Shown here: positions 9,184-61,393 of the stretch, piece after piece
Numbering within the stretch: position 1 is the first letter of the stretch
Layout of the letters: every line of letters starts with the position of its first letter
NCBI RefSeq assembly: GCF_016772475.1
Contig: NZ_CP068595.1
Location: 806,001 to 870,000, forward strand
DNA: 64,000 nucleotides
Reading direction: 5' to 3'
Origin: Paenibacillus sonchi
Lineage (GTDB): Bacteria > Bacillota > Bacilli > Paenibacillales > Paenibacillaceae
Translations under genes and position numbers: made by a program
Notes under the pieces: model-generated
Databases searched by the model: none
What the model saw: only the letters and a program-made list of their open reading frames with translations
What the model was told of the DNA's origin: nothing

Positions 9184-9639
9184 TTATTCACCGGCCATCT
9201 GACGATAGCTGGTATCGCTTACTACACGGCGGGCTGTAACATAACGGTCACGGTAATAGGAATCCGAGAGCTTGCTTATTCTTACGCCTTTGCTGCTTGA
9301 GGAATGTGCAAACTGGCCATCCCCGATATAAATGCCTGCATGGGAAACCCCGTTACCGAAAGTATTAAAAAAGACCAAATCCCCCAGCCGCAAGTCATCC
9401 TTGGACACCTCAGTGCCAGCCTTGGCTTGAGATCCTGTTGTACGCGGCAGATCACCTGCATTGAACTTCTCCATAATATATAAAATGAAGCCTGAACAAT
9501 CAAAACCGGCTGCCGTCGTTCCTCCCCATACATAAGGAGTTCCCAATACCCCATTCACTTCATTCTCAAGACTGATTTCACTTGCGTATGTATTCGCTGG
9601 AATAGCTGTGAATAATAGCGCAGACCCTATCAACGACAT
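9184..9639 (-). CDS. Secreted NlpC/P60 cell-wall endopeptidase
   Basis: This is a compact 151-residue hydrolase made of a signal peptide and one NlpC/P60 domain, with no SH3 or LysM wall-binding module. The catalytic Cys is in AAGFDCSGFILYI, the His in NGVSHAGIYIG, and the third position lies in the QFAHSSSSKG region. The family cleaves D-gamma-glutamyl-meso-diaminopimelate bonds in peptidoglycan stem peptides. From ATG 9639 the signal peptide (SLIGSALLFTAIPANTYA) lacks basic residues. An in-frame CTG at 9654 would add KKFI and give a normal n-region, with GGGAG upstream, so the true start may be CTG. It is a monocistronic gene with its own terminator. Confidence 0.85.
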   Translation of the reverse strand: MSLIGSALLFTAIPANTYASEISLENEVNGVLGTPYVWGGTTAAGFDCSGFILYIMEKFNAGDLPRTTGSQAKAGTEVSKDDLRLGDLVFFNTFGNGVSHAGIYIGDGQFAHSSSSKGVRISKLSDSYYRDRYVTARRVVSDTSYRQMAGE

Positions 9640-10230
9640 AATGAACTTTTTCAGAACCCTTTGCTCCCTTCAATGCCTACGGAGTTAGCTGAGGGTTCGG
9701 TTAAAGGTTCCCTATATTCCTTTGCTTTCAAGAATAATTCACCCAAAAGTGGTTCCCCCGTTTTCAAAATGAAATTCGGCAACAATTCATTAATTTTTTG
9801 TAACTATTTCTATAGTATTTTATCTAGTATCACTCTGTCAATCCTATTTCCTGTTTTATCGTTTTCATTGTAAAATAATACAAAAATATACCCAGTTTAT
9901 AGTATAACCTCCGCCAACAGGGAGCAAGTAACCCGTTAAATGAACATGATTTATACTAATTTTATCTCTCCCTCTGTAAGTCTATATTATATTAATAGTA
10001 TAAAGGTTACATAAATGTTACTCTCCGCTTCCTTGCCGCCAAGCCGCAATATCCGCTCCAGCGACTCGCCCCGCTCTTGCCTGGCCGGTCCGGATGGTGG
10101 AAAAAGGCCGAACGAAACGAAGCACCGCAACCCGTTAGCCCGGATTGCGGTGCTTCATTTTTGAAGAGGACACGTTAAAATCACCGGCATGGCACAATTT
10201 CAACTTTATTTTCCTAGTGAGATGTTAGAC
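9640..10230. other. Gene-poor gap with an orphan terminator and GC-rich relic
   Basis: No convincing gene is present. 9660-10020 is AT-rich. From about 10021 to 10110 the base composition turns sharply GC-rich, and this is followed by a strong plus-strand hairpin (AAGCACCGCAA pairing with TTGCGGTGCTT, 10118-10155) with a TTTTT tail. No intact plus-strand gene precedes it, so this may be the tail end of a deleted gene. Confidence 0.5.
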
Positions 10231-15315: not shown

Positions 15316-15755
15316 TGCACATATCCCTTCATATATAAATTCCTGCTTCTCTTCCATTGCCGGTTACCCATCAAATCGGTGCTCTGCTCATTTGTACAAA
15401 TCCCTTCATCGGTGAATTTTCCATTGCCTACAGTACACTTACAGTTACATCTCCGCTTCTGTTGAAAGCATCCTTCTCAGTATAACAAAATCAGGTGGAG
15501 ATTATCTACATCTAAGCGGGGGAAGGTAAATTATCTTGGGTTGTATAAGAGTGAATAGATTTGGCTGGAGCTGTAACTCCAGTGGATGGTTTGATTTCGG
15601 ATCACTGTGCCTACAGATTTCTTGATTTATACCGCTGCTCCCAGTGAAAATCCGCAGACAAAGGCGGACGTATTTGCTCCTACAGTTCAAACTTCCCCGC
15701 CACCACGTCTGCCTTTTTGTAGTCCTTTTGTTCAGCTTATATAATAATAAATATT
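15316..15755. other. Gap upstream of prfC
   Basis: This 440-base stretch holds the prfC promoter region and, at 15586-15701, a divergent copy of the ~120-nt structured repeat also found at 47570 and 61205. No protein-coding gene is supported. Confidence 0.5.
15586..15701 (+). repeat. ~120-nt structured dispersed repeat, copy 1 (divergent)
   Basis: It aligns along its length with the copies at 47570-47689 (same strand) and 61205-61323 (opposite strand). Shared landmarks are CAGATTTCTTGATT, ATCCGCAGACAAAGGCGGAC and CAGTTC-AAACTTCCCC. The outer arms GTTTGA/TCAAAC have each lost one base relative to GTTTGGA/TCCAAAC in the other copies, a matched change. Its inner stem is less well kept. Confidence 0.75.
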
Positions 15756-35344: not shown

Positions 35345-35532
35345 TATGTTGGAAAAAGGGAACCTATTTCCCCAATATATCAACATTCGCGGGAATTAAG
35401 TGGAAAAAGGAAACTTAATCAGGCCATATTCGTCCGTCAGGGGCGGAAAGGGCTGGATTAGTTTACTTTTTTCCACTTACTCTGCGGGGCGCGGGCAGCG
35501 TCGAGCAAATTAGTTAACCTTTTTCCACCTGG
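35345..35532 (+). repeat. ~200-bp palindromic dispersed repeat, copy 1
   Basis: Four GTGGAAAAAGG-type sub-repeats, two in plus (near 35349 and 35399) and two in minus orientation (near 35466 and 35509), make an imperfect palindrome. The whole stretch aligns with the reverse complement of 47330-47535. Confidence 0.75.
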
Positions 35533-47329: not shown

Positions 47330-47535
47330 AGGCAAAGTGGAAAAAAGGTCACTAATTTGCTGGGGCACCCTATTCTCCGCAGGTGAAGTGGAAAAAGGTT
47401 AACTAATTCGGCTCATTTCGCTCCCGACGAAGGAATATGGCCCAATTAAGTTTCCTTTTTCCACTTAACTCTCACAATTGTTGATTTTAGTGAGAAATAA
47501 GTTCACTTTTTCCAACTAGATAGAGTGAACTTAAG
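47330..47535 (-). repeat. ~200-bp palindromic dispersed repeat, copy 2
   Basis: Its reverse complement aligns along its length with 35345-35532. Sub-repeats GTGGAAAAAGG occur near 47337 and 47388 (plus) and near 47457 and 47502 (minus). The 21-base stretch around GTGGAAAAAGGTTAACTAAT at 47388 is exactly repeated in inverted form at about 35509-35529. Confidence 0.75.
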
Positions 47536-47569
47536 ATATTTACATTAGGGACTTTGTCGGGACTCCGGT

Positions 47570-47689
47570 GAATGTTTGGACTTCCGGCCGCTGTTGTCTG
47601 CAGATTTCTTGATTATTCCCGCTGTTCGCGGTGGAAATCCGCAGACAAAGGCGGACGCTACCGCTCCTCCAGTTCCAAACTTCCCCTCC
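47570..47689 (+). repeat. ~120-nt structured dispersed repeat, copy 2
   Basis: Outer arms GTTTGGA and TCCAAAC enclose CCGC/GCGG and a long inner stem TTGTCTGC-x-GATTTC / GAAATC-x-GCAGACAA. It aligns almost base for base with the reverse complement of 61205-61323, which has different but still complementary stem bases. Confidence 0.85.
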
Positions 47690-47866
47690 ACCCTTTTCCC
47701 TTTTGTTAGTTTTTCAAGTTCGCTTTATATAGATGGACGCTTGACCTGGAGATTCCGCCGCTTGTGCCATGGACGCACTGCTTATCTGCTTCTTCGCAAA
47801 GGCCAGTTGGAAAAAGGAGAGCGAACCGGGCTGATCTCCACGTGAATCCGCTCAATTCACGTCTAC

Positions 47867-47898
47867 TTATCCCCAACTTTATACACATCTTATCCACA
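47867..47898 (+). promoter_or_regulatory. DnaA-box triplet (copy 2)
   Basis: TTATCCCCA (47867), TTATACACA (47879) and TTATCCACA (47890) repeat the boxes and exact spacing seen at 5754-5785. Confidence 0.5.
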
Positions 47899-47932
47899 AA
47901 AGGGGAATTATAATTTCCTAAATATGCACAAA

Positions 47933-61160: not shown

Positions 61161-61204
61161 TTGTCCTGATGAACTTAGGAATTACCATAAAGGTGTATAG
61201 TAAC

Positions 61205-61323
61205 GGAGGGGAAGTTTGGAACTGTAGGAGCGAACGCGTCCGCCTTTATGTTTGGATTTCTACCGCAATCGCGGTATGAATGAGGAAATCCAAACATAAC
61301 AGCGGCCGGAAGTCCAAACATTC
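61205..61323 (-). repeat. ~120-nt structured dispersed repeat, copy 3
   Basis: The reverse complement aligns closely with 47570-47689. Its inner stem reads TTATGTTTGGATTTC / GAAATCCAAACATAA, a perfect pairing whose bases differ at several pairs from the other copy. Confidence 0.85.
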
Positions 61324-61393
61324 CCTGGAGTTACGACCAGCACCAAGTATGACAGCTCCTATGTTCATCAGGACTTCATCCAAACAGCAAGAA

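What the first reader, a model, noticed from the sequence alone, without database searches (positions are those of the whole stretch)
47570..47689. Family of ~120-nt intergenic elements with compensatory stem changes
Three gaps carry related elements: 15586-15701, 47570-47689 and 61205-61323 (inverted). Copies 2 and 3 share nearly all loop and flank bases (GAATGTTTGGACTTCCGGCC, AAGGCGGACGC, CAGTTCCAAACTTCCCC), yet the inner stem changes on both arms: TTGTCTGC/GCAGACAA in one and TTATGTTT/AAACATAA in the other. Conserved pairing with changing bases is the mark of a selected RNA or DNA fold, or of a mobile palindromic element. I know of no named family that matches, but I could not search.
Basis: seen in the sequence. 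Interest (0 to 1): 0.75.

Follow-up and report, generated by a model that had tools for sequence, protein, structure and literature searches.

The report
Structured mobile DNA repeat of Paenibacillus
The three repeats belong to a large, apparently undescribed family of short hopping DNA elements found throughout the bacterial genus Paenibacillus, which insert at TA sites, probably using another element's enzyme, and whose two halves keep matching each other even as their sequence changes.

Summary
The three ~120-nt stretches are cores of one family with about 74 copies or fragments in this genome, present in all 36 same-genus genomes sampled and 6 of 23 others of the order. Full copies are ~211-260 bp with terminal inverted repeats TATARNNTGAACTT. 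Window copy 2 (47519-47729) is absent from the nearest relative, leaving one TA. IS630-family insertion sequences in related genomes carry nearly the same ends. So recent copies are MITE-type elements, most likely moved in trans by an IS630 transposase, as proposed for pneumococcal RUP. Covariation is strong: 30 of 35 pairs change on both sides (shuffles 21.7), in 469 cells (shuffles 117). G-U and A-C cells are similarly rare (58, 43), unlike a small riboswitch control (19, 1), which favours pairing kept in DNA rather than RNA. Outer arms pair copy by copy. Copies lie antisense to co-directional neighbour genes (42 of 45) and on the lagging strand (61 of 74). What the conserved three-way core is for, and whether selection or hairpin-templated correction keeps the pairing, is unresolved.

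The parts
47519..47729 (+). copy 2, full element of 211 bp with terminal inverted repeats
   Evidence: absent from G028 (L149) and G015 (L150); boundaries from the empty site CCAAC-TA-GATGG in G028
47517..47518 (.). left TA of the 2-bp target duplication of copy 2
47730..47731 (.). right TA of the target duplication of copy 2
47570..47689 (+). core of copy 2 (three-way-junction fold)
   Evidence: R1 match 146.9 bits, E 1.1e-38 (this copy is one of the 32 the model was built from)
61164..61373 (-). copy 3, full element by its paired outer arms TCCTGATGAAC / GTTCATCAGGA; no IS630-type ends; lies between convergent open frames
   Evidence: same site in G015 and G031 with an identical core; interrupted by a deletion in G028
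61205..61323 (-). core of copy 3, inner stem TTATGTTT/AAACATAA subtype
   Evidence: R1 match 129.5 bits (in the model)
15544..15744 (+). copy 1, decayed full element with degenerate ends (TATAAGAGTGAA ... GTTCAGCTTATATA)
   Evidence: sequence; boundaries by resemblance only, no clean empty site
15584..15702 (+). core of copy 1, inner stem partly broken
   Evidence: R1 match 93.9 bits (in the model); fold z -0.93

Best explanation
The stretches are cores of a genus-wide family of non-autonomous mobile DNA elements (MITE type). Shown: recent copies are 211-260 bp, end in TATARNNTGAACTT inverted repeats, and where an empty site could be resolved they sit at a duplicated TA. Inferred: an IS630-family transposase, encoded by a ~1.16-kb insertion sequence with nearly the same ends in related genomes, cuts them out and inserts them in trans. 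Shown: a conserved three-way-junction core (CTTCCGRYCGCTG ... AAAGGCGRWCGCTNNCGCTYCT) is framed by stems whose sequences differ between copies but stay complementary, without the G-U bias of an RNA. Inferred: the pairing is kept at the DNA level, because a hairpin or cruciform formed when the element is single-stranded is either the form acted on during movement or is copied arm-to-arm by template switching. Shown: orthologous copies have exchanged blocks, so conversion between copies spreads arms and modules together. Inferred: copies survive mainly where they lie antisense to surrounding transcription, because the other orientation disturbs it, or because of replication-strand effects.
For: Copy number and spread. 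Empty sites with a single TA: copy 2 against L149; L003 against L178, L006 against L198, and L090, which lies inside a copy of another repeat whose 17 printed counterparts in G028 (L180-L196) lack it. Ends: 99 hits to the end motif against 1 for the reversed control; IS630-family transposase (NF033545, PF13358) in a unit with both ends, 1133-1164 bp, at five loci in three genomes (L222, L229, L233 of G028; L223 of G032; L224 of G009; family scan made on L229 only, DDE_3 in all five); the seven insertion-sequence ends compared match 14-16 of 17 bases. Covariation on 86 rows: 94.8% of cells paired against 77.5% shuffled, 30 of 35 pairs with both-sided change against 21.7, 0 of 500 shuffles reaching any measure, slid controls 34-56% paired. 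DNA rather than RNA: G-U 58, A-C 43, other mismatches 77 among 2462 cells outside helix 4, against G-U 19, A-C 1 in 182 pairs of seven c-di-AMP riboswitches (Fisher p 0.0008 if cells were independent, which they are not). Arms pair copy by copy: own against swapped partner, p 1e-7 to 0.002 in the four groups of 20 or more. Block exchange at orthologous sites. Orientation.
Against: No IS with a pair of matching ends was found in this genome: its three DDE_3 matches show at most one weak end-like site and one match holds a stop. 32 of 74 copies lack one or both recognisable ends; no recent insertion of that kind was shown, nor were they all tested for age. Two of nine genomes (G036, G011) have no DDE_3 match yet 38 and 60 R1 matches. 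An IS630-type transposase should need no internal structure (recalled), so mobility does not explain the conserved core. Helix 6 alone leans to G-U (29 against 9) and helix 4 keeps a T-G pair, so folding of one strand is not excluded. Over all columns, unpaired ones are no more conserved than paired ones (0.77 against 0.80); only those round the junction are near-invariant. Alignment A3 was fitted to the model, related rows inflate the shuffle control, and 53 of its 86 rows lie in loci fetched with a pattern that fixes 18 bases of the core.
Confidence: 0.72

Rival explanations
1. The core is a functional structured RNA (riboregulator or processed transcript) that has been carried to many places as MITE cargo.
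For: Conserved junction bases framed by covarying stems are typical of structured RNAs. Orientation relative to genes is strongly biased. Helix 6 leans to G-U. The core of copy 3 is identical at one site in three species whose surrounding 1.4 kb is 93-96% identical.
Against: G-U 58 against A-C 43, whereas the riboswitch control gave 19 against 1. No Rfam family. No promoter- or terminator-like site in 47400-47900, though chance alone would give under one. No open frame recurs beside more than three loci. The biased orientation puts the modelled strand antisense to the neighbouring genes.
Confidence: 0.15
2. The pairing is a neutral by-product: hairpin-templated strand switching and conversion between copies keep the arms complementary, and no fold is under selection.
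For: Both-sided changes with similarly rare G-U and A-C cells. Even unconserved outer arms pair copy by copy. Block exchange at orthologous sites.
Against: Conserved imperfections persist: T-G in helix 4 in 71 of 84 scorable rows, a bulged T in the outer stem of copies 2 and 3, and near-invariant unpaired bases round the junction. A correction process should erase such imperfections. Recent differences between orthologues look mostly one-sided, by eye.
Confidence: 0.3
3. The core is a single-stranded DNA substrate of an unidentified recombinase or host factor (as with REP/RAYT or attC), and IS630-type ends were added later in one lineage.
For: Conserved asymmetric junction with variable stems, lagging-strand bias (61 of 74 and 44 of 55), and core copies without recognisable IS630-type ends across the genus.
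Against: No associated gene was found beside copies in this genome. The strand bias is confounded with gene direction: between convergent or divergent neighbours it is only 22 of 33, p 0.08. The four resolved empty sites are all of the TA type.
Confidence: 0.2

Closest known systems
RUP (repeat unit of pneumococcus)
   Same: Short intergenic MITE-type repeat, 110 copies in one genome, ends similar to those of IS630-Spn1, hypothesized to move in trans (PMC3049150, passages read).
   Different: RUP is ~107 bp, AT-rich and called 'simple' there; its shared structure missed the threshold in PMC2267715 (passage). Here a three-way core with covarying stems, 211-260 bp, throughout one genus. No sequence comparison with RUP was made; its TA duplication is recalled.
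bcr1 of the Bacillus cereus group
   Same: Intergenic repeat of 147-167 bp with a conserved predicted structure (table passages of PMC2267715) and mobile-element character (title in its reference list).
   Different: Sequence not compared here; its ends and target duplication differ by recall only.
BOX elements of pneumococcus
   Same: Modular, structured, many intergenic copies of varying length (PMC3049150, passages).
   Different: Some BOX copies are reported as expressed; BOX ends resemble ISSpn2, not IS630 (same passages). No sequence comparison made.
REP/REPIN with RAYT transposases
   Same: Palindromic intergenic DNA, thought to be acted on as hairpins (recalled).
   Different: REPs are 20-40 bp (abstract of PMC3733652, listing only); no RAYT gene was noticed beside copies, though none was searched for by family.

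Membership tests
IS630-dependent MITE (RUP-like) | short element without its own transposase gene | tested here: met
   full copies 211-260 bp; no gene recurs beside more than three of the loci compared, and that one is transporter-like (Pfam on one of its copies)
IS630-dependent MITE (RUP-like) | terminal inverted repeats like those of an IS630-family IS | tested here: met
   ends match 14-16 of 17 bases; IS630 transposase by NF033545 and PF13358. Only 42 of 74 copies show both ends, so the remaining 32, copy 3 among them, do not meet it
IS630-dependent MITE (RUP-like) | 2-bp TA target duplication | tested here: met
   four resolved empty sites; a fifth (L024/L179) is compatible but ambiguous; the other copies were not resolved
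IS630-dependent MITE (RUP-like) | movement by the IS transposase in trans | not testable with these tools
   needs a transposition assay
structured RNA family (Rfam) | match to a curated covariance model | tested here: not met
   no match over the core at or near a gathering score
structured RNA family (Rfam) | G-U favoured over A-C in stems | tested here: not met
   58 against 43; riboswitch control 19 against 1; helix 6 alone 29 against 9
structured RNA family (Rfam) | transcription as a discrete RNA | not tested
   no expression data available here
REP/RAYT | associated Y1 RAYT gene | tested here: inconclusive
   no shared gene within 1-1.5 kb in this genome; no search for RAYT by family was made

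The most novel reading that the evidence does not exclude
A three-way-junction DNA fold, not an RNA and not just terminal repeats, is the selected part of a hyperabundant Paenibacillus element: the folded single strand, exposed on the lagging-strand side, is recognised by an as yet unknown factor that drives spread or exchange, and IS630-type ends are only one of its vehicles.
Probability: 0.22. Interest if true: 0.78.

Novelty: new variant of a known kind. Interest (0 to 1): 0.52.

Why it matters
The family is present in every one of the 36 same-genus genomes sampled, at 5 to at least 60 copies each, yet matches no Rfam family and no paper found here. It gives a clean test of when compensatory change means a functional RNA: the covariation is strong, but the G-U/A-C count points to DNA. 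Automated screens for structured RNAs might well call such elements RNAs.

Tried and rejected
Known RNA family: rejected (the sub-threshold hits are far below gathering scores and, but for one over the left arm, lie outside the element). Plasmid or phage cargo: two weak plasmid hits, both Paenibacillus; no phage hit. Shared neighbouring gene as mobilizer: only ORFs running through the element itself, overlapping loci, and paralogues; the widest recurrence is a transporter-like gene at three loci. Array system (CRISPR- or integron-like): the multi-copy loci L252 and L271 look like local tandem duplications of one unit. Promoter or terminator in copy 2: none found. Replication alone as the cause of orientation: cannot be separated from transcription; six copies between co-directional lagging-strand genes split 4 (antisense) to 2. 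Rapid arm-to-arm correction: recent orthologous differences look mostly one-sided (by eye, no count made). Paenibacillus riograndensis RNA-seq paper PMC5670726: passages only; 'repeat' does not occur in its main text; supplements not readable here. Pattern hits outside the genus: Marinobacter, Bifidobacterium, Natrialbaceae and Cohnella loci (L286, L294, L295, L297) gave no R1 match at E 1e-4 and are taken as chance or unconfirmed.

Rows dropped or partial: 3 of 77 R1 matches were left out of the orientation counts (two opposite-strand shadows, one 35-nt match); partial copies of 54-83 nt were kept. All 86 rows were used; one search gives all 86 and a reduced set; seven short or opposite-strand rows were removed. 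One search used 67 of the 74 copies of this genome, leaving out seven weak or partial ones, and did not test the 20 foreign copies with one end. For G028, 55 places shown were used; others were not listed. The riboswitch control used 7 of the 10 alignments printed. Ten orthologous pairs with G028 were compared. Searches of papers show only the top rows (20 of 749, 12 of 16, 12 of 216). Structure prediction, protein homologue search and viral-contig scans were not used.

Full report
Observation. The three stretches exist at the stated places and are one family. Copies 2 and 3 fold better than all 200 shuffles; copy 1 is a decayed member. The genus is Paenibacillus: 72 of the 80 records listed by a pattern scan of named genomes are so titled, 4 are one 'Bacillus sp. 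FJAT-27264' genome, and 4 are unrelated or unconfirmed.

Extent. Aligning 30 genomic copies plus the two other window copies showed that the conserved ~120-nt stretch is only the centre. Many copies end in CTATATARANTGAACTT and its complement; in 28 measured ones the ends span 212-225 bp, or 257-259 bp in a long form with an extra ~40-nt hairpin in the right inner arm. The end motif occurs 99 times with at most one mismatch, against 1 for the reversed control.

Copy number. R1, built from 32 copies, finds 77 matches at E <= 0.01 in this genome, of which I count 74 as distinct copies or fragments. BLAST found two plasmid places, both Paenibacillus, and no phage.

Mobility. Against the nearest relative G028 (99% identity in the neighbouring protein), copy 2 is missing...CCAAC-TA-GATGG... 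in G028 is ...CCAAC-TA-[211 bp]-TA-GATGG... here; G015 is empty too. L003/L178 gives GGTT-TA-GGTT and L006/L198 also resolves to TA; L090 sits inside a copy of another interspersed repeat whose 17 printed counterparts in G028 read CCAAC-TA-GC or close variants. L024/L179 is compatible but ambiguous.

Candidate mobilizer. Nine genomes were searched for DDE_3; seven had matches. Five loci in three genomes hold a 1133-1164-bp unit with both ends of the form TATARNTTGAAC (one end with a first-base change) beside TA. The one examined (L229) encodes IS630-family transposase in two open frames. The seven insertion-sequence ends compared match the element end TATAAGTTGAACTTAAG at 14-16 of 17 bases. 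None of this genome's own three DDE_3 matches has such a pair of ends. I infer trans-mobilization; it is not shown.

Structure. On 86 matches from many species (A3), 94.8% of cells pair (shuffles 77.5%), 30 of 35 pairs change on both sides (21.7) in 469 cells (117 +/- 12); 0 of 500 shuffles reach any of the five measures, and sliding by one to three columns drops pairing to 34-56%. Relatedness among rows inflates the first control. In distant copies the outer stem is rewritten too, for example GAATGTTTGGA/TCCAAACTTCC against CGGATTGTTCT/AGAACAATTCC. Bases round the junction (CTTCC, TTG, AAA, CGCT-type) are near-invariant, but over all columns unpaired ones are no more conserved than paired ones (0.77 against 0.80), and 53 of the 86 rows lie in loci drawn by a pattern that fixes 18 bases.

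DNA or RNA. If one RNA strand were selected, G-U should be tolerated and A-C not. Outside helix 4 there are 58 G-U and 43 A-C cells and 77 other mismatches among 2462; without helix 6, which leans to G-U (29 against 9), it is 29 against 34. The same count on seven c-di-AMP riboswitches from related genomes gives 19 and 1 in 182 pairs. The control is small. G-T is also the milder mismatch in single-stranded DNA (recalled), so a slight lean to it does not prove RNA. Outer arms pair with their own partner better than with partners from other copies (-32.4 against -25.3 kcal/mol for 21 copies of this genome without recognisable ends, p 0.002; -31.5 against -22.9 for 39 from other species, p 1e-7, RNA energies as a stand-in, swapped pairs not independent).

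How copies evolve. At ten orthologous sites compared with G028, the long/short module differs at four (L012, L030, L081, L084), and at L030 the left arm and core have been replaced while the right end is kept. Copies thus exchange blocks, and the elements differ more than their flanks at eight of the ten sites (not L085, whose left flank aligned badly, nor clearly L004). Copy 3 is at the same site in G015 and G031 with an identical core and three arm differences in G031, and is interrupted by a deletion in G028.

Orientation. The modelled strand lies on the C-rich, presumably lagging, strand in 61 of 74 copies here (p 1.4e-8) and 44 of 55 in G028; between co-directional genes it is antisense in 42 of 45 and 29 of 36. 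Genes were called by a simple codon-score script, and 14 of the G028 copies share both flanks with a copy here (5 more one flank). Removing these leaves 29 of 36 on the lagging strand (p 0.0003). Bias is seen in copies with and without both recognisable ends (34 of 42; 27 of 32). Replication and transcription cannot be separated with these numbers (22 of 33, p 0.08, where neighbours are convergent or divergent).

Known or new. Nothing in Rfam, and no paper among those listed by searches describes it by title, abstract or the passages read; that covers only the open-access library. The working principle (IS630-type ends, no transposase of its own) is that of RUP (PMC3049150, passages). The three-way core, copy-specific paired arms and strand-symmetric covariation set it apart, so I file it as a new variant of a known kind.

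Noticed in passing
window 47337-47517 and 35348-35528: Two mutually inverted copies of a second repeat. A related repeat sharing AAGTTCCCTTTTTCCAAC gave about 26 places in G028 with the L090 flank query; several elements of the main family abut it at CCAAC-TA.
   Followed up: partly
window 9659-9791 (-): c-di-AMP (ydaO/yuaA) riboswitch, upstream of the open frame at 9184-9639.
   Followed up: no
L252:1228-1788 and L271:7140-7872: Three tandem copies of the element, spaced 182 bp (P. xylanexedens) and 244-245 bp (P. cellulosilyticus).
   Followed up: partly
L012 (G000:C1:3708387): The element's right end TATATAA lies 14 bases before an ATG preceded by GGAAGG, and a long open frame runs on from inside the element.
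   Followed up: no
L151:3860-4300: In G031 an IS630-ended copy appears to sit inside an older copy of the family that is present at the same site in G028 and G015 (by eye).
   Followed up: no
G000:C1:5433711-5433801, 1043230-1043365, 6298909-6299058: Paired ends only 91-150 bp apart, probably deletion derivatives of the element.
   Followed up: no
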